The translations under genes were made by a program, and so were the position numbers. DNA of 64,000 bases from Granulicella mallensis MP5ACTX8 (GTDB taxonomy: Bacteria; Acidobacteriota; Terriglobia; Terriglobales; Acidobacteriaceae). The DNA lies in NCBI RefSeq assembly GCF_000178955.2, contig NC_016631.1, positions 1,054,001-1,118,000 of the forward strand, read 5' to 3'. Position 1 is the stretch's first letter; every line of letters starts with the position of its first letter. The notes beneath the pieces were generated by a model. That model was not told the DNA's origin. It searched no databases and was given only the letters and a program-made list of their open reading frames with translations. Shown here in pieces: positions 15,064 to 23,982 of this stretch.

Positions 15064-15861
15064 TCATCGTCTTAAACGCCGATCGACGAAGGACGGAGTA
15101 ACCTCCGAAGCCGGCTTCCCAGAAGTATCGGCGCGTCCCTCTGTGCGGTTGGCGAGTTCCGTAACAGACTCGTTGCCTTCCGCAGCTTTCAGAAACTTCA
15201 TGAGGTAGATGGCGGGGACGGAACGCAGCGCATCGTACTCCGCGAGCTTGTTCGTTTGCTCGAAGACATGACGTTCGGGTTCGGCGAAGGCGGGTTCGTT
15301 GAGTGTGAGGAGTTGGAAGCCGCGACGGCTAAAGGCGGCGATGATCTCAGTCATGGTGAGTGGGTTGGCGGGAAGCTCAATGCGCTTGCCCTCAAGATAA
15401 AAACAGCGAATCCAATGGCGCTGTGCGGCCGTTGTGGGGTGCATGTCGGAGAGGAGGAGGTGTCCGCCAACGCGGAGGATGCGAACGCACTCGCCTGCGA
15501 AGGCATCCAGATCTGCGAGGTAACTCAAGACGAAAGAGGCGAGGATAAGATCAGTCGACGCGTCGGCGACGGGCAGGGTGGTGGAGTCGCTGAGGTGGAG
15601 GGCGGTGGTGGGAGCGAGCGTGGCGCGTGCCTTCTTCAGCATCGCGTCGGAGGCGTCCGTGCCGGTGAGGGAACTGGGGGCGAGGAGTTCCATTTGCTTT
15701 AGCCAGCGCCCGGTACCGCAGCCTACGTCGAGGACATCAAGGCCTTCGATCGGCGGCATCATCGGAGGGAGAGTGCGCTGTTCGAGTAGAAGCAGGGGAT
15801 TGGGCTGAATGTCATAGACCTCAGCCCAATCATTGAAGAGCGCACGTGTGGCGGTGTTCAC
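15064..15861 (-). CDS. Class I SAM-dependent methyltransferase
   Basis: 265 aa. Motif I is VLDVGCGTGRW (about 43-53), motif II region LTGTDASDAML, and the post-motif LILASFVLSYLADLDAFAGECVRILRVGGHLLLSDMHP is typical of ubiquinone/biotin-type methyltransferases. Last gene of the radical SAM operon; its ATG overlaps the stop of the upstream radical SAM gene (15858-15861), so the two are translationally coupled. It probably modifies a small molecule made by this cluster. The C-terminal 35 residues are polar and likely disordered. Confidence 0.82.
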   Translation of the reverse strand: MNTATRALFNDWAEVYDIQPNPLLLLEQRTLPPMMPPIEGLDVLDVGCGTGRWLKQMELLAPSSLTGTDASDAMLKKARATLAPTTALHLSDSTTLPVADASTDLILASFVLSYLADLDAFAGECVRILRVGGHLLLSDMHPTTAAQRHWIRCFYLEGKRIELPANPLTMTEIIAAFSRRGFQLLTLNEPAFAEPERHVFEQTNKLAEYDALRSVPAIYLMKFLKAAEGNESVTELANRTEGRADTSGKPASEVTPSFVDRRLRR

Positions 15862-17327
15862 AGACTTTCCCGTTTTGGTCTACGCAGAGCGATGAACTGG
15901 TTAGCGAGGTGGAGCTCGAACGGAAAGCGATAGAGGTGCAGCGTATAACGCCACGCGCTCAACACTTGAAGGAAGATACGACTCCAGCGTGGCGCCCGGA
16001 TGTCCTGAACCGTGGGCCAGCGGGATGCGACGACGGTCTCGAAGTTGTCGATGAGGAGCTTGGTCTTCCGCTTGAGCCAGGGTGCGTTGGTATCGATACG
16101 AAGGGTGAAGTTCATCCACTCTTCGGTGGCCCAGCCAGCGGGGGTATCGGGGAAGGGGACCTCGATGTTGCCATACATCCCATCGCCGGCCTGATGGGGC
16201 TGAGGAGTGGGAGTGTAATGCTGGATGATGATCTCGGAGTCCGGATTGATGCGCTTGATCTTGCGAATAAAACGCAGAGTCTCGTGGGTATCGCGGTCGG
16301 GATCGTTGGGGTTGCCGATAACGAAGGAGAACTCCGGGATGATGCCAAACTGGCGGGTGCGGCGCGCGATCTCGAGAGTCTGAGCCGTGGTGATGCCTTT
16401 CTGCATCTCCTCCAGCACCCAGTCGGAGCCTGACTCCGCGCCGAAGAAGATCATCGCGCAGCCGGCGCGTTTGATGGAGGCCCATGTCTCGTCTGAATAG
16501 CGAGACATGATGTCGACGCGGGCTTCACACCACCAACGAAGGTTCAGATGGGCCATGCCGTCGCAGAGTTCGCGGGCCTTATCTTCGCGAAGGAAGAAGT
16601 TCATGTCGTAGAACTGGACGGAGTCCGCGCCGTAGTTCTTTACGAGATGGGTGAGTATGGCGACGGTGCGCTCGGGAGACTCGAACTTTTCCTTGTTGCC
16701 GTAGGCTGCGTGAACTCCACAGAAGCTGCAGTTGAAGGGGCAGCCGATGCTGGCGTGATGTACGGCTGTTCGCTTTCCGAAGAAGGATGGGCGAAGGTAT
16801 TTTTCAACGGGGAGGCGGTGGAAGGGGGACCAGGGGAACTCGTCCGGCCCCTTCATCGGACGCTCACCGTTGTCGCGGCGCAGGCCGAACATGTCTTTGT
16901 ACAGGAGCCCCTTAATGGTGTCGAGTTCGCGGTTGCCGCGAAGGGCGTCGAGGAGTTCCAGAAGGGTGTCTTCGCCCTGGCCGCGGACCACGTAGTCGAC
17001 ATAACGGGCGTTGAGGGCGGCGTCGGGATAGATAGAAGGGAAGTAGCCGCCCCAGCAGATGGGGACCTCGGGACGGAGCCGGCGGATCTCGCGAGAGGTC
17101 TCCATGGCCGCGACCATCTGGGGGCCGGGCATCGCGGAGACGCCGAGGAGCTCAACGTTGTGGGTGGAGATGAGGTCGAGGATGCGTTGGGTCGCATTGT
17201 CTTCCGCGTTGCCGTCTACGATCTCGTAGTCGACCTTACCTTCGAGAACGGCGGCGAGGGCAAGCACTGCCAGAGGCAGCCGGCTGTTGCGTGGCTTCGT
17301 GGCGCGGGGATGAAAGAGGATGATCAT
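15858..17327 (-). CDS. B12-binding radical SAM protein (cluster member 4)
   Basis: 489 aa. An N-terminal cobalamin-binding Rossmann domain (about 1-140, with GVSAMPGPQMVAAMETSREI and the conserved VRGQGEDTLLELL turn) is followed by a radical SAM barrel with C196-x3-C200-x2-C203 (CPFNCSFC). The HASIGC approach and later GAESGSDWVLEEMQKG are typical of BchE/HpnP-like proteins. Such enzymes use methylcobalamin or cobalamin plus SAM for C-methylation or radical rearrangement. ATG 17327 is chosen because it overlaps the upstream methyltransferase stop in ATGA; it also has a purine-rich GAGAAAG before it. Substrate is unknown. Confidence 0.85.
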   Translation of the reverse strand: MIILFHPRATKPRNSRLPLAVLALAAVLEGKVDYEIVDGNAEDNATQRILDLISTHNVELLGVSAMPGPQMVAAMETSREIRRLRPEVPICWGGYFPSIYPDAALNARYVDYVVRGQGEDTLLELLDALRGNRELDTIKGLLYKDMFGLRRDNGERPMKGPDEFPWSPFHRLPVEKYLRPSFFGKRTAVHHASIGCPFNCSFCGVHAAYGNKEKFESPERTVAILTHLVKNYGADSVQFYDMNFFLREDKARELCDGMAHLNLRWWCEARVDIMSRYSDETWASIKRAGCAMIFFGAESGSDWVLEEMQKGITTAQTLEIARRTRQFGIIPEFSFVIGNPNDPDRDTHETLRFIRKIKRINPDSEIIIQHYTPTPQPHQAGDGMYGNIEVPFPDTPAGWATEEWMNFTLRIDTNAPWLKRKTKLLIDNFETVVASRWPTVQDIRAPRWSRIFLQVLSAWRYTLHLYRFPFELHLANQFIALRRPKRESL

Positions 17328-18148
17328 TGCGAGACTTTCTCGAAGCACAGCAAAACGTGGTCGCCTGTAGTGCGCAGGAGCGGCACACGGGCGAGAAAAG
17401 ATTCAAGACGGCAAAGAAGCCGAAAGGCAGTCGGATGATTGCGAGCCCATGGTTCCAGGTAGGAGGGGGGCACCGCGACACCGATTCCAGTGGTGGAGCT
17501 GAGCCGGAAGTGCGGGCTGAAGCTACGAAGGATCTGCTTGAGGCTCGGATAGTAAACATCGAGCGAGACGCCGTCGATGGTGGCCTGTGTGTGACCGCTC
17601 AGTCTGCGAAGCGCTTTTTTCTTCTGGCCGAGAGCAAGGTAGTAGAAGATCTCCGTCAGACAGACGCGGGTTGAGAAGCAGAGCAGAAGCCGGTCCCCAT
17701 CCTTGACGAGAGGGGCGAGCGATGCGGCGACAGGTGCGAGGTCCTCAATGCAGTTGAGCCCGGAGAAGTTGGAGAAGACGCCGTCGAAGCGACGGGCGGG
17801 GGCAAATTCGTTGATACGCTCCGTGGGGAGATGGCAGAATACGACGGACAACGGAACGGGTTGAGCTTTGAGCCGCTGCTCGGCGTGCGTGATCATCTCT
17901 TGCGAAGCATCGCAGGACAGGACAGAGATGCCGTGCTGGGCGAGGAAAAGGGCGTCCTCGCCGGTGCCGCAGTTGAGCTCCAGGATGCTGTCGCCAGGAC
18001 GAAAGGTTTCGAGCAGGACCTTCCAGACAGAGTTGCGCTGAGCGCGGCCAATGAGAGTCTCGGTGAACTTATCGTCGTAGACGGGGGCGAGACGGTCAAA
18101 GGCGGCTCCGGCAGCATGAACCGTAGTTGAGAGAGGAGAAGCGATCAT
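17324..18148 (-). CDS. Class I SAM-dependent methyltransferase of the radical SAM operon
   Basis: 274 aa. The start MIASPLSTTVHAAGAAFDRLAPVYDDKF is typical of the family; motif I is ILELNCGTGEDALFL (Asn replaces the usual acidic/Val position before Cys), and an acidic motif II follows in VLSCDASQEM. ATG 18148 overlaps the upstream stop in ATGA, and its own stop overlaps the next start in ATGA, so it is tightly coupled between two radical SAM genes. An upstream extension of the frame is an arginine-rich shadow of the neighbouring gene. The second half, RLLLCFSTRVCLTEIFYYLALGQKKKALRR, is hydrophobic and may contact a lipid-like substrate; this is inference. Confidence 0.82.
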   Translation of the reverse strand: MIASPLSTTVHAAGAAFDRLAPVYDDKFTETLIGRAQRNSVWKVLLETFRPGDSILELNCGTGEDALFLAQHGISVLSCDASQEMITHAEQRLKAQPVPLSVVFCHLPTERINEFAPARRFDGVFSNFSGLNCIEDLAPVAASLAPLVKDGDRLLLCFSTRVCLTEIFYYLALGQKKKALRRLSGHTQATIDGVSLDVYYPSLKQILRSFSPHFRLSSTTGIGVAVPPSYLEPWARNHPTAFRLLCRLESFLARVPLLRTTGDHVLLCFEKVSQ

Positions 18149-19554
18149 GCCTCTACCTCGTACTGCGTGGCCAGAAGGCCCTGGCGTGAGGCTGTAATGC
18201 TCTGTGCGAGATTGTTGATGAGGGCTATGTCTTGCCCTCCGCCGTCTGTGAGTTTGGCGAGTTCTACTTCGTCGCGGAGAAGCTTGTCTGCGTGGGCATA
18301 ATAGGCGCGGGAATGACGACCCTTGATTTTGATCTCGCGGTCTGAACTCTTGCCCCACGGACCGAGTTGCACCAGCTTGCTCTGGATCTGCTGGTAATAG
18401 GGCGTGCCTTTGATGGGATAGGAGACGGTGGTGAAAAAGATGTCAGGTTTCGATTTGCTGACATGATGAATGGTCGCCTCGATGTCCTCCATCTCTTCGC
18501 CTTCATAACCCCACATCAAGAACATGCCGCTCTGGATGTTACGCGCGCGGGTCTGCTCGATGGCGCGTTGGACCTGTTCTACCTTTACGCCGCGGTCCAT
18601 GGAGTCGAGCAGCCGCTGCGAACCTGATTCGGACCCGATCCAAATGCGGAAGCAGCCAAGCTCTGCGAGCAGATCCAGCATCTCTTCATTGAGCCGGTCG
18701 GCTCGCGATATGCACTCGAAGGGGATGTGTATATTGCGGCGACGCATCTCGCCTGCATATTTGCGGATCCAATCGTGATTGATCGTGAAGACGTCGTCCG
18801 AGATCCAGGCGATGTCCGGTGTGTACTCATGGAGGAGGAACTCAAGTTCGTCGACGACCTTGAGCGGATCGCGGCGGCGGTGAGTCTGGCCGTAAACCTG
18901 GTGGCTGCACCAGCGGCATTTATACGGGCAGCCACGCGCGGTGATGAAGTTGACCGAACCCTGTTGGTGATGGGTTCGCCAGGTATCGACATAGCGATGA
19001 AGATCGATGGCGTGACGCGCGGGCCACGGCTGTGCGTCAAGATCCGCGATCTGGGCTCGTGGCGGATTCTGATGGTAGTGCCCGGACTCATCGAGAAAGG
19101 CTACCCCGGCGATCTTGGATCTCCAGCCGGCGTCGGTCTGGTCTGCGCGTGCGCGCAGGGCGGTCAGCAACTCCTCCATGGTCGCCTCACCTTCGCCGAA
19201 GACCACGAATTCCGCGCCAGACTCCAGGTATTCCTGCGCATAGGCTCCAGGTTCCGGACCACCGACGACGACACGCCAGCCGGCTTCGCGCGCGACTGCC
19301 ATGATCTCTACGGCGTTTGTCCGCGTCATCAGGTTGGCATAGATGCCGAGCACCGTTGGAGTCTCGGTGCGCAGGTGATGAATGAGGTCTGGCTTGCTGG
19401 AGAAGGTTGTGTCAAATACGTCGACGTCAAAACCCCGCGCGCGCAGATGGGAACATAGATAGAGAATCCCCAGTGGAGCATAGGGCTTCATGATCTGGAT
19501 CTCTTTCGGATCATCGAAGAGAAAATAACCGTGGGTAAGCAGAAGGTCCGGCAT
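18145..19554 (-). CDS. B12-binding radical SAM protein (cluster member 3)
   Basis: 469 aa. Cobalamin-binding domain in the first 150 residues (LGIYANLMTRTNAVEIMAVA, then VVGGPEPGAYA), radical SAM motif C209-x3-C213-x2-C216 (CPYKCRWC), and the conserved FRIWIGSESGSQRLLDSMDRG strand. The variant start MPDLLLTHGYFLFDDPKEIQIMKPYAPLGILYL contains the P-x-LG-x-LY motif common to B12-radical SAM enzymes. ATG 19554 has AAAGGAG 6 nt upstream; ATG 19581 overlaps that site. A decayed homologue of residues 81-106 lies at 23977-24053. Its stop overlaps the methyltransferase start. A 71-nt gap separates it from the preceding radical SAM gene, leaving room for an internal promoter. Confidence 0.85.
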   Translation of the reverse strand: MPDLLLTHGYFLFDDPKEIQIMKPYAPLGILYLCSHLRARGFDVDVFDTTFSSKPDLIHHLRTETPTVLGIYANLMTRTNAVEIMAVAREAGWRVVVGGPEPGAYAQEYLESGAEFVVFGEGEATMEELLTALRARADQTDAGWRSKIAGVAFLDESGHYHQNPPRAQIADLDAQPWPARHAIDLHRYVDTWRTHHQQGSVNFITARGCPYKCRWCSHQVYGQTHRRRDPLKVVDELEFLLHEYTPDIAWISDDVFTINHDWIRKYAGEMRRRNIHIPFECISRADRLNEEMLDLLAELGCFRIWIGSESGSQRLLDSMDRGVKVEQVQRAIEQTRARNIQSGMFLMWGYEGEEMEDIEATIHHVSKSKPDIFFTTVSYPIKGTPYYQQIQSKLVQLGPWGKSSDREIKIKGRHSRAYYAHADKLLRDEVELAKLTDGGGQDIALINNLAQSITASRQGLLATQYEVEA

Positions 19555-19625
19555 CAAGCTCTCCTTTCTATGTTTGGCCATTGCTCGATGTTATATGCGA
19601 GTGTGTGAGCAGGACGCTGACCCGG

Positions 19626-21173
19626 TCAGCAGACATTGGCCGGCTCCTGTTTCGACGCGGGCGTAAGCACTGGCAACGGCTGCCCTGTGACAAGGGAACG
19701 GCGCCTGACTAAATACTCCGAGACATGCGAAAGCCACAACTCCCAAGGGAAAGAGAACTGGGAGGAGTCGAGCCGCCAGCGTATTGGCCGGCTAACGAGG
19801 CGGGCGATACGCTTCTGTATATTGCTTACTCCAGACTTGTGGCGAACCTGATTGAGTAGAAGAAAATACTCGAGCATACGATCGAGACGTGCAAGCTCAC
19901 GTCCTCTGAGCCAAGGGAGAAAGTTAGCTCCCAGTGGCATAGTCATCCAGTCTTCGAGAGTCTGAGGCTCTACGACACCGAGTTCACGCAACTGCGGCCA
20001 GATTGGAATGCCTGGATAAGGGGTAAAGATATTTGGGGAGAAGCGTACATTCGGGAACTGCCTACCGATATCGGACATCGTTCGGAAGGTCTCGAGACGA
20101 TCTTGTTCGGTCTCACCTGGGTAACCGAGTATGAGGTTGAATGTAACGCGTATACCCGCAAGCGATGCTTTGCGCGCGGTCTCATACATCTCATCCACTC
20201 GCTGATGGCGCTTGTTCATCAATTTGAGAACAGCCTTGGAGGTAGACTCAGTGCCGAAGCCCATATAGCTGACACCACTGTCGGCAAGTAACTGCACTTC
20301 ATCCTGACTCATGCGGCAAATGAAGTCAGTGGATGCCTGAAAGGTCCAGGTGAACTTGACGCCAGAGTCGCGGATTCCCTGGGCGATAGCGATGGCGCGA
20401 CGGAGGTCAACGGGGAAGTTGGAGTCAAGCAGGGCGACATTGGAGATACGGTACTGTTTGACGAGGCCCACGAGTTCGGCGACGACGTGCTCGGCAGCGT
20501 ATGCGTTGAAGCGGCGTTTGTAGACCACCATGTCCGTGCAGTAGTTGCAAGCATAGGGGCAGCCAACGCTGGTGGCATACGCGAGTTCGCGTTTGCCGGA
20601 GATGCGTTCATAGCTGTCAAAGTCCGTGGCCTCGTAGGCCGGCGGTGCAAAGGCGTCGATGGGCTGGACGCGGCGCTCGAAGTTTTCGATGAGACGTCCG
20701 TTCTTCTTCCAGGAGATGCCCTGTATAAAATCGAGCGGGTTTCTGTCGGCGAGGGCCTTCGCTAATTCAACGATGGTAGCCTCGCCCTGCCCACGCACGA
20801 CGATATCGACATAAGACTCACGCAGGGTGGACTCTGGACAGAGCGTCGGGTGCCAACCTCCGAAGATGACGGGGACGGTGGGTGTGTGCTCCTTGACACA
20901 CTGCGCTGCTTCGATGGCGCCGCGAATCATGGGGCCCGTGAGGACTGAGATGCCGATGCAGACTGCATGCTTGCAATGTTCACGGATCTTATCGAGGTAC
21001 TTTGGCTCGATTGCAGCGTCGATCAGCACAACCTCAAAGTTGGCCTCCTTCAAGGTGCCGGCAAGCGCGAGCAGAGAGAGGGGGGCACCGAGAGGCGGCC
21101 CATCATAAGGTGGATAGAAGAGAACCACCTTGCCGCGGCTTGGAGCGACGGTTTGATCGAAGGCCTCTAGCAT
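19626..21173 (-). CDS. B12-binding radical SAM protein (cluster member 2)
   Basis: 515 aa. Cobalamin-binding domain (VVLFYPPYDGPPLGAPLSLL, then GISVLTGPMIRGAIEAA and GGWHPTLCPEST) and radical SAM motif C205-x3-C209-x2-C212 (CPYACNYC). It is clearly paralogous to the upstream gene: LTGPMIR, GGWHP, VVRGQGE and FTPYPG-P are shared in order. Its C-terminal extension of about 130 residues, ending in WRLDSSQFSFPWELWLSHV, has a counterpart in the upstream protein, so this pair shares a domain not present in the other two radical SAM proteins. Overlaps the upstream gene by 7 nt. Confidence 0.85.
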   Translation of the reverse strand: MLEAFDQTVAPSRGKVVLFYPPYDGPPLGAPLSLLALAGTLKEANFEVVLIDAAIEPKYLDKIREHCKHAVCIGISVLTGPMIRGAIEAAQCVKEHTPTVPVIFGGWHPTLCPESTLRESYVDIVVRGQGEATIVELAKALADRNPLDFIQGISWKKNGRLIENFERRVQPIDAFAPPAYEATDFDSYERISGKRELAYATSVGCPYACNYCTDMVVYKRRFNAYAAEHVVAELVGLVKQYRISNVALLDSNFPVDLRRAIAIAQGIRDSGVKFTWTFQASTDFICRMSQDEVQLLADSGVSYMGFGTESTSKAVLKLMNKRHQRVDEMYETARKASLAGIRVTFNLILGYPGETEQDRLETFRTMSDIGRQFPNVRFSPNIFTPYPGIPIWPQLRELGVVEPQTLEDWMTMPLGANFLPWLRGRELARLDRMLEYFLLLNQVRHKSGVSNIQKRIARLVSRPIRWRLDSSQFSFPWELWLSHVSEYLVRRRSLVTGQPLPVLTPASKQEPANVC

Positions 21174-22693
21174 GCGGCCTCCGCAGGTGTGTTGGCGAGG
21201 CGCTTGGCATCGACGGCGGGTTTGTGTGCCGCTGATAGGCGTTTCTTCAGCTTGTTATTGAGCCAGATCTCTACGGGGTACTTGTAGACATCATTGTCGA
21301 GGCGCCAACGGGCCGGAAGAGAGAGACTTTTTTGGGCGATGCGGGTGATGGGGCCGCGAGTGTCCGTCGCGATGGGGATACGGTCGAAGGCGATGCGGAG
21401 ATAATCCCGCGTTATCTGGAGGCGCTCGTGCTCTTTGCCCTTGAGCCAGGGAAGCTGCGTGTAGCGCGGGAAGTAGTCGGCCCATCCCTCGAGTGTCTTG
21501 GGAACTTCTATGCCCATCTCTTGGGCGCGTTTCATGATGGGTGAGCCGGGATAGGGAGTGAAGATGTTCGTCCAGAACTCCGCGCCAGGAAAGCGGCGAC
21601 AGACGTCCATCATGAAATTGATGGTTTCACGGCGTTCCGTCATACCCTCGCCTGGGAAGGCGAAGATGATATTGAAGGAGGGCCGGATGTCCGCGGCAAG
21701 GCAGCGTGCGGCACTCTCGTAGATCTGGTCGAAGTCCTGGAAGGTCTTATTCATCAACTGCAGGACCTTGGGGGAGCCGGAATCAACGCCCTGGCAGATT
21801 TGCTGCAATCCCGCACGGCGAAGCAATGTCAAATCCTCATGGGAGAGCCGGGCAACCATATTTGTCGTGGCTTGCACGCTCCACTTGAATTGCGACTTCT
21901 CGCGCACAAGGCCCTCCGCGATACCTCGTACACGGTCGAGATCGACCATGAAGTTATCGTCGACCACCCACAACATCTCCAACTGATAGCGCCGGGTGAG
22001 ATCGACTGTCTCTTCGACGAACTGTTCGGGTGGCAGGGCGTTCCACTTGCGGCCATAGACACCGGCGTTCGTGCAGTAGCCGCAGTTGAACGGGCACGCA
22101 AGGGAGGAGGTATACATGGCCCAACGTTTGCCGCAGCCGCGCTCGTAGGCGTCGAAATCAGCAATGTGATAAGCCTTGGGAGGCATATCCATGAGTGGCT
22201 TGAGGGGGCGCTCAGGCGTCATGATGAGTTTACCGCCGCGTTTGAAACCAATGCCTGCTATGAGGTCCGGGGCAGAGTGACTCTGGAGGTGCTGCACGAG
22301 CTCAAGGAGAGCATCCTCGCCCTGCCCGCGAACGACGTAGTCCACGCAGTCAGCCTGAAGAGTCTGGTCGGGAAGAAGAGAGGGATGCCATCCGCCGAGG
22401 ATAATGGGAAAATCAGGGTTCCATTCCTTAACCGCACGCGCGATCTCTACCGTCTCGCGAATCATGGGACCGGTGACGAGCGAGATGCCCAGGCAGACGG
22501 CGTCACGAACCTCTTCAAGTACACGCTGTTTGAAGTTGGGGGTGATGGTGGAGTCAATGAGAACGATGTCGAAGCCAGCTCGTATGAGCGGGGTTGCGAC
22601 AGCCAGGATCCCTAGAGGCGCCGTTGCTTCTGAACTAGCGAAGGAAGGGAAGAAGAAGACGATTTTCCTGGATGAGACGGAGTTCTTGGGCAT
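21167..22693 (-). CDS. B12-binding radical SAM protein (cluster member 1, operon leader)
   Basis: 508 aa. N-terminal cobalamin domain (IVFFFPSFASSEATAPLGIL, GISLVTGPMIRETVEIA, GGWHPSLLPDQT) and radical SAM motif C200-x3-C204-x2-C207 (CPFNCGYC). C-terminal WRLDNDVYKYPVEIWLNNKL matches the extension of the next gene. AGAGGAG precedes the ATG by about 10 nt. It is the first gene of a six-gene minus-strand operon (22693 to 15064), and the phased repeat array at 22731-22785 begins only 38 nt upstream of its start codon. Confidence 0.86.
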   Translation of the reverse strand: MPKNSVSSRKIVFFFPSFASSEATAPLGILAVATPLIRAGFDIVLIDSTITPNFKQRVLEEVRDAVCLGISLVTGPMIRETVEIARAVKEWNPDFPIILGGWHPSLLPDQTLQADCVDYVVRGQGEDALLELVQHLQSHSAPDLIAGIGFKRGGKLIMTPERPLKPLMDMPPKAYHIADFDAYERGCGKRWAMYTSSLACPFNCGYCTNAGVYGRKWNALPPEQFVEETVDLTRRYQLEMLWVVDDNFMVDLDRVRGIAEGLVREKSQFKWSVQATTNMVARLSHEDLTLLRRAGLQQICQGVDSGSPKVLQLMNKTFQDFDQIYESAARCLAADIRPSFNIIFAFPGEGMTERRETINFMMDVCRRFPGAEFWTNIFTPYPGSPIMKRAQEMGIEVPKTLEGWADYFPRYTQLPWLKGKEHERLQITRDYLRIAFDRIPIATDTRGPITRIAQKSLSLPARWRLDNDVYKYPVEIWLNNKLKKRLSAAHKPAVDAKRLANTPAEAAC

Positions 22694-22730
22694 ATAGACG
22701 ACGCTCCTCTATTGAGATCTTGCCGTTTCG

Positions 22731-22785
22731 CTGTTAAGAGCGTGTCACATCGGTGTCTATGAATTGTCAGGAGTTTGTCATTTAT
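22731..22785. promoter_or_regulatory. Five 11-bp-phased direct repeats, Pho-box-like
   Basis: Units begin at 22731 (CTGTTA), 22742 (GTGTCA), 22753 (GTGTCT), 22764 (TTGTCA) and 22775 (TTGTCA), each exactly 11 bp apart. The spacing and the (C/T/G)TGTCA core match the known PhoB box design of 7-bp CTGTCAT repeats with 4-bp spacers, and more generally sites for OmpR/PhoB-type winged-helix regulators. The array lies in the spacer shared by the radical SAM operon and the HPr-kinase-like gene. No strong sigma-70 elements could be placed beside it. Confidence 0.55.
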
Positions 22786-22962
22786 GTCCAGAGCGAGTTG
22801 AAGGCTCTTTTCCAGGAAGTTCGTTCGTGGAAATGGTGACGAAGCGCGGACAAAGTGGTGACAAACCAATCACCCATCCTTCCTACACTTTGTTAGTCAA
22901 CCGGTAATGCAGAAGATGGAAGTTTTCAGCTTCAACCAGCCAGGTGCAGGAAAGGAAAATTG

Positions 22963-23982
22963 TTGACGACCGAACTTCTTAAACACGGATCTCCTGAGGC
23001 GACTATCGCTCCAAAGCCAGTCACGGCAGAGGAGACACTCCTTTGCAATATGGAGTTGCCGCTCCGTGGCGTCTTTTATCCTCTTGGCTTTCCCGTCGAG
23101 ATCGTCACCAATGAGCAAGCCGTTCTGGACGCCGCTAACGATAGTTGGGGCTATCTTCGTCCTCGGCAGATTGATTCTGTAGTGCAGCTCCGCATCAGTG
23201 TTAGTGAAGGAGGCGGGTCCGAGTGCCCGCCCACGCCTGCTTCTCGGGCTAACCGTCACTTGTTATCGATTGTGGCGGACGCAGACAATCAGGCGATCGT
23301 CGATCTTAAAGCAGGCTTTGCCGCCGTCTGGCTGAATCAGGCGACGATACGTCACAGTCTGTATCTTCGCTATCACTTTCTTGAAGGCGCTGCGTATGTT
23401 CTTCTCTGCACGTCAGCCGTAACAGCTCTGCACGCAGCCTGTGTCAGCCGGTACGGACGAGGTATTCTTTTGTGTGGAGACTCCGGGGCGGGCAAGTCTT
23501 CTCTGTCCTATGCCTGCGCGCGTGCCGGATGGACCTATACTTCGGACGACGCCAGTTATCTTCTACACGGCACGGATGATCCCCGGGTCGTCGGCAACTC
23601 GTATCAGGTGCGTTTTCGACCGACGGCCAAGACACTCTTTCCAGAGCTGGAAGGTCGTGCACTCACTCCACGAGCAGAGGGTAAACCCTCCATTGAAGTT
23701 CCTACCTCCGAGTTGCCCGGGCTCATTACCGCGAGCGAGGCGAGAATCGACTTTATCGTCTACCTCAATCGAGGGTCGTCAGAGACGGGAGAACTGCTAC
23801 CGCTACCCGATGGCGTTGCGATAGAGCGCATTCGAGAAAATTTATATCCCATCGCCGAAATTCGTGCGATCCATGAAGAGGCGGTGCAGGTACTATCAGG
23901 CGTTCCTGCCTATGAACTGCGATACCGCGACTTCGATCACGCCATCGGACAACTCGACCGGCTGGTCCGCTCCCACGCGTAG
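22963..23982 (+). CDS. HPr-kinase/phosphorylase-like P-loop ATPase
   Basis: 339 aa. The C-terminal half has the HprK fold signature: LHAACVSRYGRG, Walker A GDSGAGKSS, then YTSDDASYL, matching the HprK His, P-loop and paired-Asp elements. The first 130 residues are not the HprK N-domain and are unrecognised. There is no ATG in this frame: TTG 22963 (6 nt after AAAGGA) or TTG 22960 are the best starts. HprK-related kinases of this kind are found in peptide and other natural-product clusters (for example lasso peptides), where they modify something other than HPr. The 3' end is odd: its TAG stop lies inside a fragment of a radical SAM gene (23977-24053). Confidence 0.75.
   Translation: MTTELLKHGSPEATIAPKPVTAEETLLCNMELPLRGVFYPLGFPVEIVTNEQAVLDAANDSWGYLRPRQIDSVVQLRISVSEGGGSECPPTPASRANRHLLSIVADADNQAIVDLKAGFAAVWLNQATIRHSLYLRYHFLEGAAYVLLCTSAVTALHAACVSRYGRGILLCGDSGAGKSSLSYACARAGWTYTSDDASYLLHGTDDPRVVGNSYQVRFRPTAKTLFPELEGRALTPRAEGKPSIEVPTSELPGLITASEARIDFIVYLNRGSSETGELLPLPDGVAIERIRENLYPIAEIRAIHEEAVQVLSGVPAYELRYRDFDHAIGQLDRLVRSHA

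What the first reader, a model, noticed from the sequence alone, without database searches (positions are those of the whole stretch)
15064..23982. Radical SAM (B12) x4, methyltransferase x2 and HPr-kinase-like ATPase: an uncharacterised biosynthetic locus
Six minus-strand genes are chained by 4-bp or 7-bp overlaps (one 71-nt gap), and the kinase is divergent from them. The four radical SAM proteins all have CxxxCxxC and cobalamin domains. The pair at 19626 and 21167 share a C-terminal extension the others lack. HprK-like kinases occur in natural-product and peptide-modification loci, but no PqqD-like, precursor or transporter gene is seen here. The product may be a methylated lipid, pigment or peptide.
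Basis: partly seen in the sequence, partly recalled or inferred. Interest (0 to 1): 0.75.

Follow-up and report, generated by a model that had tools for sequence, protein, structure and literature searches.

The report
Split acidobacterial B12-radical-SAM pathway
Six neighbouring genes in this soil bacterium look like part of a ten-enzyme, vitamin-B12-dependent pathway of unknown product that recurs in many Acidobacteriota; the remaining four genes lie elsewhere in the same genome behind the same type of control sequence.

Summary
The operon is real: four B12-binding radical SAM genes (RS1-RS4), two methyltransferases and a divergent HprK-like ATPase. One detail is wrong: RS4 shares the C-terminal extension with RS1 and RS2. 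The window holds part of the system. In relatives the order is RS1-(RS2)-RS5-RS3-MT1-MT3-RS4-MT2-amidohydrolase-SPASM (80 Acidobacteriota loci). Here the four missing genes form one block about 4 Mb away. RS1-family and SPASM genes co-occur in 20 of the 22 genomes that have either, of 150 sampled. Both operons carry GACA repeats with 11-bp period, exact only upstream of RS1 in the window and only upstream of RS5 in the fetched second locus; genome-wide 18 matches against 0 for the reversed control. Another site precedes a polysaccharide operon with the kinase's paralogue, NTP_transf_5 and an OmpR-type regulator. HprK-like and NTP_transf_5 matches lie in 39 and 33 of the 80 loci. I infer a multi-methylation tailoring pathway tied to a secreted glycan; the product is not shown. 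No listed NCBIfam model is reached, and nine literature searches showed no description.

The parts
15064..15861 (-). MT2, class I SAM methyltransferase; in many Acidobacteriaceae relatives the N-terminal half of a ~650-aa methyltransferase-amidohydrolase fusion
   Evidence: Pfam Methyltransf_11 E 1e-19; 52% identical to residues 17-237 of the L034 fusion
15858..17348 (-). RS4, B12-binding radical SAM enzyme (ATG at 17327); has the C-terminal extension
17324..18148 (-). MT1, class I SAM methyltransferase (ATG start with 4-bp overlap; longest ORF runs to 18358)
18145..19581 (-). RS3, B12-binding radical SAM enzyme without the C-terminal extension (alternative ATG at 19554)
19555..19625 (-). 71-nt gap where most relatives carry RS5 (extra B12-binding radical SAM gene); the RS5 of this genome is at G000:C1 about 5.059-5.060 Mb
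19626..21173 (-). RS2, B12-binding radical SAM enzyme with C-terminal Cys; match in 49 of 80 related loci
21167..22693 (-). RS1, B12-binding radical SAM enzyme, first gene of the operon; conserved tail KPxVDA...C
22743..22780 (-). operator: TGACAAACTCCTGACAATTCATAGACACCGATGTGACA, GACA direct repeats with 11-bp period, about 50 nt upstream of RS1
   Evidence: only place in the window with exact GACA-N7-GACA-N7-GACA (two overlapping matches); 18 matches vs 0 in the reversed control genome-wide
22960..23982 (+). HprK-like P-loop ATPase (Walker A GDSGAGKS), divergent from the operon
   Evidence: below curated cut-offs; HprK-like match in 39 of 80 related loci, often with NTP_transf_5

Best explanation
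The six genes are part of a conserved ten-enzyme, cobalamin-dependent tailoring pathway of Acidobacteriota: five B12-binding radical SAM enzymes (RS1-RS5), three class I SAM methyltransferases, one ATZ/TRZ-type amidohydrolase (AH) and one SPASM radical SAM enzyme. In this Granulicella the set is split over two operons (window: RS1 RS2 RS3 MT1 RS4 MT2; second locus: RS5 MT3 AH SPASM, followed by a GT87 membrane protein), tied together by the same operator of 11-bp-phased GACA repeats, most likely bound by an OmpR-type response regulator. Inferred mechanism: the B12 enzymes use SAM and methylcobalamin to methylate (or otherwise modify by radical chemistry) unactivated carbons of one scaffold in succession; the class I methyltransferases methylate O, N or carboxyl groups; AH deaminates or deacylates an intermediate; the SPASM enzyme makes a further radical modification. 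The tailored unit is then used by, or attached to, a lipid-linked secreted glycan, whose locus carries the HprK-like kinase and the NTP_transf_5 nucleotidyltransferase, which may phosphorylate or activate the unit. Shown: gene complement, conserved order, co-occurrence, shared operator, neighbourhood with glycan genes. Inferred: every reaction, the regulator and the product class. My estimates: one pathway 0.93; co-regulated with the exopolysaccharide locus 0.75; product is a glycan or lipid-linked-glycan modification 0.45.
For: Domains and motifs. Order RS1-(RS2)-RS5-RS3-MT1-MT3-RS4-MT2-AH-SPASM in Acidobacteriaceae and Bryobacterales loci. The four missing genes lie together in one second locus of the same genome. 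A second Granulicella (G460, RS1 97%) has RS5 and MT3 away from RS1 too, behind the operator, but keeps an MT2-AH fusion and SPASM next to RS4, while at its RS5 locus only the first ~93 residues of AH remain: complementary losses in the two genomes, each still having matches to all the core genes I looked for. Co-occurrence in the 150-genome sample: RS1-family hit in 21 (20 RS1 orthologues, one of them in fragments, plus G141 with an RS2-type hit only), SPASM in 21, both in 20, neither in 128. Operator: exact only upstream of RS1 in the window and only upstream of RS5 in L064; G000 strict pattern 6 vs 0 in the reversed control, loose pattern 18 at 14 places vs 0; with one mismatch 71 vs 2 in 1.35 Mb of relatives, upstream of an operon-first gene in 27 of 77 loci (27 of 117 such genes). 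Glycan link: one site precedes cupredoxin, cytochrome c, then Poly_export/SLBB, Wzi, Wzz, Polysacc_synt flippase, GT4, WecG, HprK paralogue, two MFS, GDPD-HEAT, NTP_transf_5 and an OmpR-type regulator; HprK-like match in 39 and NTP_transf_5 in 33 of 80 loci; Bac_transf, Wzy_C, MurJ-like and GT genes beside the operon in L131; GT87, HprK and RS1 in a row on one strand in L068. The RS1 model resembles TsrM, TokK, OxsB, AprD4, CysS.
Against: No reaction or product is demonstrated. In several long loci no HprK, NTP_transf_5, GT87 or flippase match was found in the fetched flanks (e.g. L069, L070, L071, L073, L074, L142). The operator also precedes genes with no obvious glycan role (TonB-plug proteins, ferritin-like, unclassified), so it may mark a broad regulon. 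All 27 loci with the operator are among the 45 with RS1 at 66% identity or more; 18 of those 45 and all 34 more distant loci lack it at 0-1 mismatches. The strict pattern had 0 matches in G072 (its RS1 promoter shows a one-mismatch form by eye). In G460 the SPASM match carries one in-frame TGA, so the set may not be fully intact there. G141 (99% complete) has no RS1 orthologue, and G111 and G073 have only one of the two marker genes. No sugar-specific enzyme was recognised inside the ten-gene core. The best NCBIfam hits of RS1, RS3 and RS5 include lipid-type B12 radical SAM models (TIGR04072, HpnJ), far below cut-off.
Confidence: 0.5

Rival explanations
1. The pathway makes a free-standing small molecule (secondary metabolite, cofactor or pigment) from a primary metabolite; the glycan genes are neighbours only because they share an extracellular-lifestyle regulon.
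For: The ten-gene core holds only tailoring enzymes; the operator also precedes TonB-plug proteins, a ferritin-like protein and a cupredoxin; the amidohydrolase is nearest to ATZ/TRZ-type deaminases; the best solved relative of the SPASM protein of L051 is BlsE of a nucleoside antibiotic.
Against: No exporter recognised in the core; repeated linkage with flippase, Wzy, GT87 and NTP_transf_5 genes in Acidobacteriaceae and Bryobacterales-type loci.
Confidence: 0.27
2. A C-methylated membrane or carrier lipid (for example polyprenyl, fatty acid or ether lipid) is the product.
For: RS1, RS3 and RS5 score best or near best with TIGR04072 'lipid biosynthesis B12-binding/radical SAM protein', HpnJ and BchE models; glycan loci use lipid carriers (recalled).
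Against: All scores are far below curated cut-offs (e.g. 121 of 360, 119 of 578 bits); HpnR reaches at most 99 of 650 bits. No lipid-synthesis gene recognised in the core. RS1-family hits in only 21 of 150 family genomes, unlike the general membrane lipids of this group (recalled).
Confidence: 0.13
3. A ribosomal peptide (RiPP): the radical SAM enzymes modify a short precursor, with HprK as peptide kinase.
For: B12 radical SAM C-methyltransferases and SPASM enzymes are common in RiPPs (recalled); HprK-like kinases occur with lasso peptides (recalled).
Against: All-against-all comparison of 3,239 short ORFs (18-130 aa) from gaps of the loci gave no family that I could read as a precursor; the one promising family (MQxFDxxETN) was the operator DNA translated. 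No PqqD, YcaO, lanthipeptide, protease or peptide exporter among the hits of the core genes.
Confidence: 0.08
4. The window copy is a decaying remnant of the full operon.
For: It lacks RS5, MT3, the amidohydrolase half of the MT2 fusion and the SPASM gene at this place.
Against: All four are present as open frames at a second locus behind the same operator.
Confidence: 0.02

Closest known systems
Cobalamin-dependent (class B) radical SAM enzymes: TsrM, TokK, CysS, OxsB, AprD4
   Same: B12-binding domain plus radical SAM barrel with CxxxCxxC; RS1 model matches these structures best, and its sequence profile hits the same ones
   Different: 13-19% identity in those structural matches; no listed NCBIfam model reached; four or five different ones in one gene set; conserved KPxVDA...C tail on RS1
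TIGR04072 ladderane-type, BchE, HpnJ/HpnR radical SAM families
   Same: Among the top NCBIfam hits, covering B12 and radical SAM domains
   Different: At best about a third of the cut-off (167 of 481 bits BchE for RS3; 121 of 360 bits TIGR04072 for RS5); no ladderane, bacteriochlorophyll or hopanoid genes recognised in the core
HprK-related kinase A/B and HprK-NTP_transf_5 pairs near polysaccharide genes
   Same: HprK-like and NTP_transf_5 genes occur together in this genome's own polysaccharide operon and beside the rSAM operon in relatives
   Different: Below cut-offs (39 of 200 bits HprK_rel_A); no PqqD partner recognised
SynChlorMet cassette (ScmC HprK-like plus ScmE/ScmF SPASM radical SAM)
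   Same: HprK-like protein with SPASM radical SAM enzymes; weak hits ScmC 24 bits, ScmE 45 bits
   Different: Far below cut-offs (125, 400); that cassette has no five B12 radical SAM enzymes (recalled)
OmpR/PhoB-family operators (11-bp phased direct repeats; recalled)
   Same: Three or four direct repeats of (T)GACA with 11-bp period upstream of the first gene; an OmpR-type regulator lies in the polysaccharide operon and beside related loci
   Different: Binding regulator not identified; no phosphate-uptake gene recognised among the ORFs called downstream

Membership tests
Class B (cobalamin-binding) radical SAM enzymes | B12-binding domain followed by radical SAM domain with CxxxCxxC | tested here: met
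   CxxxCxxC in 71/72 RS1, 38/38 RS2, 56/56 RS3, 49/49 RS4, 61/61 RS5 ORFs of relatives that passed the length filter
Class B (cobalamin-binding) radical SAM enzymes | methyl transfer with methylcobalamin | not testable with these tools
   needs enzyme assay; AprD4-like members of this fold do not methylate (recalled)
Hopanoid methylases HpnR and HpnJ | score above the equivalog cut-off | tested here: not met
   HpnR at most 99.2 of 650 bits, HpnJ at most 118.6 of 577.6; no model named HpnP among the hits listed
BchE, TIGR04072 ladderane-type | score above the equivalog cut-off | tested here: not met
   BchE at most 167.4 of 481.35; TIGR04072 at most 120.8 of 360
RiPP biosynthesis locus | conserved short precursor ORF | tested here: inconclusive
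   none found in 3,239 gap ORFs, but limited to ATG/GTG/TTG starts, 18-130 aa, BLAST clustering, and clusters judged by eye
RiPP biosynthesis locus | PqqD/RRE, protease or peptide exporter | tested here: not met
   not among Pfam/NCBIfam hits listed for the window genes or extra core genes
HPr kinase / HprK-related kinase A | curated model score | tested here: not met
   Hpr_kinase_C 27.8 of 33.3; HprK_rel_A 39.1 of 200; Walker A in 31 of 31 HprK-like ORFs of relatives
ATZ/TRZ amidohydrolases (second locus) | metal-site motifs HxH, HxxE, H, D | tested here: met
   Amidohydro_1 E 1e-17 on the L034 fusion; loose motif expressions matched in 33, 29, 36 and 38 of 38 AH ORFs
SynChlorMet cassette | ScmC and ScmE/F above cut-off | tested here: not met
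   24 of 125, 44.9 of 400 and 43.7 of 400 bits
OmpR-family regulon | 11-bp phased direct repeats in promoters | tested here: met
OmpR-family regulon | identified response regulator binding the site | not testable with these tools
   needs DNA-binding assay

The most novel reading that the evidence does not exclude
A previously undescribed acidobacterial pathway uses five cobalamin-dependent radical SAM enzymes in series to build a multiply C-methylated unit of a secreted polysaccharide (or of its lipid carrier). It is run as a two-locus regulon under a GACA-repeat operator, with an HprK-like kinase and NTP_transf_5 enzyme activating the unit. This would make cobalamin supply a determinant of exopolysaccharide structure in a dominant soil phylum.
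Probability: 0.38. Interest if true: 0.82.

Novelty: new variant of a known kind. Interest (0 to 1): 0.62.

Why it matters
Acidobacteriota are among the commonest soil bacteria, and few of their products are known (recalled). An RS1-family match in 64 of 399 class genomes sampled (59 of them at 61% identity or more) marks an unassigned multi-step B12-dependent pathway. The shared operator turns an 'unknown cluster' into a defined regulon with two operons, a candidate regulator class and a candidate product class. Five different B12 radical SAM enzymes in one gene set would be a good system for learning how such enzymes divide up modification sites, and the conserved KPxVDA...Cys tail of RS1 is a feature to test.

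Tried and rejected
RiPP precursor search: 3,239 short ORFs compared all against all; by eye the clusters were antisense or shadow frames, true cupredoxins, or the operator translated. A 19-aa ORF (22909-22968, +) just upstream of the kinase was first taken for a precursor, then for a remnant of an older kinase start; it did not appear in any cluster printed, and its DNA is nearly unchanged in the close relative X5P3 (by eye). It is left unexplained and minor.

Decaying-remnant reading: rejected once the four missing genes were found at one second locus.

The check showed that only RS5 and MT3 do; AH is a ~93-residue remnant there, followed by a GT87 start, and a full MT2-AH fusion with SPASM lies next to RS4 on another contig.

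Hopanoid, ladderane, BchE and SynChlorMet filing: tested by curated cut-offs and not met. PMC5462960 (passages seen) reports hpnP and hpnR in 'Ca. Koribacter versatilis' and their absence in the other acidobacterial genomes examined.

Kinase as chance neighbour: weakened, since HprK-like matches lie in 39 of 80 loci; but the window's kinase is only 27-30% identical to those of L043, L044, L045, L046 and L053, and 35-51% to the other listed ones apart from its X5P3 orthologue (94%).

Literature: (listings and starts of abstracts seen; only PMC5462960 opened, passages) gave no paper recognisable as describing this operon; most subscription papers are outside that library.

Strict operator pattern in two more genomes: G315 had 2 sites (RS1, and a gene 66% identical to one that also has a site in G000), G072 had none.

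RS1 structure: mean pLDDT 70, tail disordered, so the C-terminal extension is only roughly modelled as helices. The genome-contig scan used two short peptide patterns and kept the best 80 of 93 confirmed places, so more distant relatives may be missed.
Full report
What is there. Searches confirm a six-gene minus-strand operon, RS1 (21167-22693), RS2 (19626-21173), RS3 (18145-19581), MT1 (17324-18148), RS4 (15858-17348) and MT2 (15064-15861), with a divergent HprK-like ATPase (22960-23982). Each RS protein has a B12-binding and a radical SAM domain with CxxxCxxC. RS1, RS2 and RS4 share a C-terminal extension that RS3 and RS5 lack, so the statement that only RS1 and RS2 have it is wrong. The AlphaFold model of RS1 (mean pLDDT 70, pTM 0.70) matches TsrM, TokK, OxsB, AprD4 and CysS best; its sequence profile hits the same enzymes.

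It is part of a larger gene set. A search of 150 genomes of the family found RS1-family matches in 21: 20 RS1 orthologues at 66% identity or more (G137 in fragments), and G141 with only an RS2-type match. Regions around them showed further conserved genes: a fifth B12 radical SAM enzyme (RS5) between RS2 and RS3, a third methyltransferase (MT3, with a zinc-ribbon-like N-terminus by eye) between MT1 and RS4, an amidohydrolase (AH) fused to or following MT2, and a SPASM radical SAM enzyme. A scan of species genomes with two peptide patterns of RS1 gave 93 confirmed places, of which the best 80 were kept; their titles name Acidobacteriota (Granulicella, Edaphobacter, Terriglobus, Bryobacterales, Ca. 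Solibacter, unnamed Acidobacteria or Terriglobia). In these 80, tblastn found RS1 in 80, RS5 66, RS3 65, RS4 61, MT1 55, MT2 53, RS2 49, MT3 46, SPASM 46 (two of them, L133 and L137, only a 25-26% match), AH 40, HprK-like 39 and NTP_transf_5 33; the commonest neighbour pairs give the order RS1-RS2-RS5-RS3-MT1-MT3-RS4-MT2-AH-SPASM. Many loci are cut by contig ends or by the fetched length; in the 48 loci of 18 kb or more the counts are RS1 48, RS4 46, MT2 45, RS3 44, RS5 43, MT1 42, SPASM 39, MT3 34, AH 34, RS2 29.

The missing genes. In the window's own genome AH (47% to the L034 fusion) and the SPASM enzyme (45% to that of L051) are neighbours at 5.055-5.058 Mb on the single 6.24-Mb contig. 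That stretch carries, on one strand, RS5, MT3, AH, SPASM and a GT87 membrane protein. The window operon holds exactly the other six of the ten core genes. In G460, a congener with RS1 97% identical, RS5 (84%) and MT3 (77%) also lie on another contig than RS1, 154 bp behind an exact operator; but there AH is reduced to about its first 93 residues, directly followed by a GT87 start, while RS4, an MT2-AH fusion and SPASM lie together on a third contig. The two genomes thus appear to have lost AH and SPASM at opposite places. The SPASM match of G460 carries one in-frame TGA; I did not pursue whether it is a real defect. In the 150-genome sample SPASM is present in 21 genomes and RS1-family matches in 21; 20 have both and 128 neither, as far as the listed handles show. 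The exceptions, G111 (RS1 only) and G073 (SPASM only), are assemblies of 85% and 68% completeness.

A shared operator. While testing apparent short peptides upstream of RS1 and RS4 I found that they were translations of conserved DNA: (T)GACA repeated every 11 bp. GACA-N7-GACA-N7-GACA occurs exactly in the window only upstream of RS1 (22743-22779, minus, two overlapping matches) and in the fetched L064 only upstream of RS5; L065 and L003 have none. In the whole genome the strict form has 6 matches and the reversed control 0; the loose form has 18 matches at 14 places and the control 0. In 1.35 Mb of related loci, allowing one mismatch, there are 71 sites against 2 in the reversed control; 27 of 117 operon-first core genes, in 27 of 77 loci, have one upstream. 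All 27 are among the 45 loci with RS1 at 66% identity or more; the other 18 of those and all 34 more distant loci lack it at that stringency. Phased direct repeats are typical of OmpR-family response regulators (recalled); which regulator binds is not shown.

What else has the operator. Of the 14 places, one precedes a CuA-type cupredoxin, a cytochrome c and, on the same strand (about 320 bp between the two fetched stretches not seen), a polysaccharide operon with Poly_export/SLBB, Wzi, Wzz, Polysacc_synt, GT4 and WecG proteins, a kinase paralogue (44% identical to the window's), two MFS proteins, a GDPD-HEAT protein, NTP_transf_5 and an OmpR-type regulator. Another precedes a protein 57% identical to one that flanks the operon in L041. 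Others precede TonB-plug proteins, a ferritin-like protein, a pectate-lyase-like protein and unclassified proteins; at two places no ORF was called downstream (L159, L167). The regulon is therefore broader than glycan assembly.

Neighbourhood. By ORF clustering, HprK-like genes lie in 28 and NTP_transf_5 genes in 27 of the 80 loci (tblastn gave 39 and 33). Clusters whose members I take as GT4-type, Wzz, sugar-transferase, Wzy_C, GT87, histidine kinase and OmpR-type regulator genes recur in 13, 11, 10, 8, 11, 9 and 7 loci (representatives or close look-alikes typed). In L131 (RS1 62%, record title Terriglobia bacterium) Bac_transf, Wzy_C, a glycosyltransferase and a MurJ-like flippase stand between RS1 and HprK/NTP_transf_5. 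In L068 a GT87 gene, HprK and RS1 follow one another on one strand, with an operator before HprK and before RS1. The window's kinase is closest to that of X5P3 (94%), then L068 (46%) and its own paralogue (44%) by BLAST score.

RS1 tail. RS1 ends in a conserved tail after a variable linker, KPxVDA(K/Q/H)...C. A Cys lies in the last three residues in 66 of 72 RS1 ORFs and 25 of 38 RS2 ORFs; the RS4 tails displayed end in RKPKRESL or close to it, RS3 tails often in EVEA or EVEQ. The tail is disordered in the model. It may be a redox or docking element; this is inference.

How it most likely works. No scaffold-making enzyme (PKS, NRPS, terpene synthase, peptide cyclase) is among the hits of the core, so it probably tailors a ready-made substrate. 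Five B12 radical SAM enzymes suggest several methylations of unactivated carbons, although this fold also includes non-methylating enzymes such as AprD4 (recalled). The nearest solved relative of the SPASM enzyme of L051 is BlsE, cytosylglucuronate decarboxylase (E 3e-13 over residues 34-157 only). AH is nearest to ATZ/TRZ-type deaminases. With the glycan neighbourhood and shared operator I favour a sugar or lipid-linked-saccharide substrate, at about 0.45. Nothing here identifies the product.

Known or not. The NCBIfam models listed (best 25 per protein) are missed by a wide margin for the core proteins, and my searches of open papers showed no description. The enzymes are known kinds; the ten-gene set, its split and its operator are, as far as I could test, undescribed. 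Hence 'new variant of a known kind'.

Noticed in passing
G000:C1:2009155 (L158, L003): The genome's polysaccharide operon begins with a CuA-type cupredoxin (C-x3-C-x3-H-x2-M) and a cytochrome c behind the same operator; cupredoxin-like ORFs also flank the rSAM operon in L085, L086, L088, L122 and L145.
   Followed up: partly
window 21167-21220 (-): RS1 ends in a conserved KPxVDA...C tail after a variable linker; Cys within the last 3 residues in 66 of 72 RS1 and 25 of 38 RS2 ORFs.
   Followed up: partly
window 22909-22968 (+): A 19-aa ORF (MQKMEVFSFNQPGAGKENC) whose stop overlaps the TTG start of the kinase; not in any cluster printed. The kinase's true start is uncertain (ATG at residue 31 possible).
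   Followed up: partly
L066 (Granulicella mallensis X5P3): RS2 is missing between RS1 and RS3 in a near relative; no RS2 match in 31 of 80 loci (some truncated), so RS2 looks optional.
   Followed up: no
L034, L069-L071 and other Acidobacteriaceae loci: MT2 and the amidohydrolase are fused into one ~650-aa protein; separate in the window's genome and in Bryobacterales-type loci.
   Followed up: partly
L105, L107, L051: A carbamoyltransferase (Carbam_trans_N E 2e-84 in L107), a GDSL-like protein (below cut-off) and, in L107, a polysaccharide flippase sit next to RS1 in a subgroup where the operon is broken into divergent parts.
   Followed up: partly
   Followed up: no
G000:C1:4509569 (L164) and G315:C1:4523737 (L171): Two proteins 66% identical to each other (TIGR03118-like by recall) have the operator upstream in both genomes, so they may be a conserved regulon member.
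   Followed up: partly
G460:C1 and G460:C4 (L172, L173, L176): In this congener AH at the RS5 locus is a remnant while AH and SPASM persist beside RS4; the reverse of the window's genome. The SPASM match has one in-frame TGA.
   Followed up: partly
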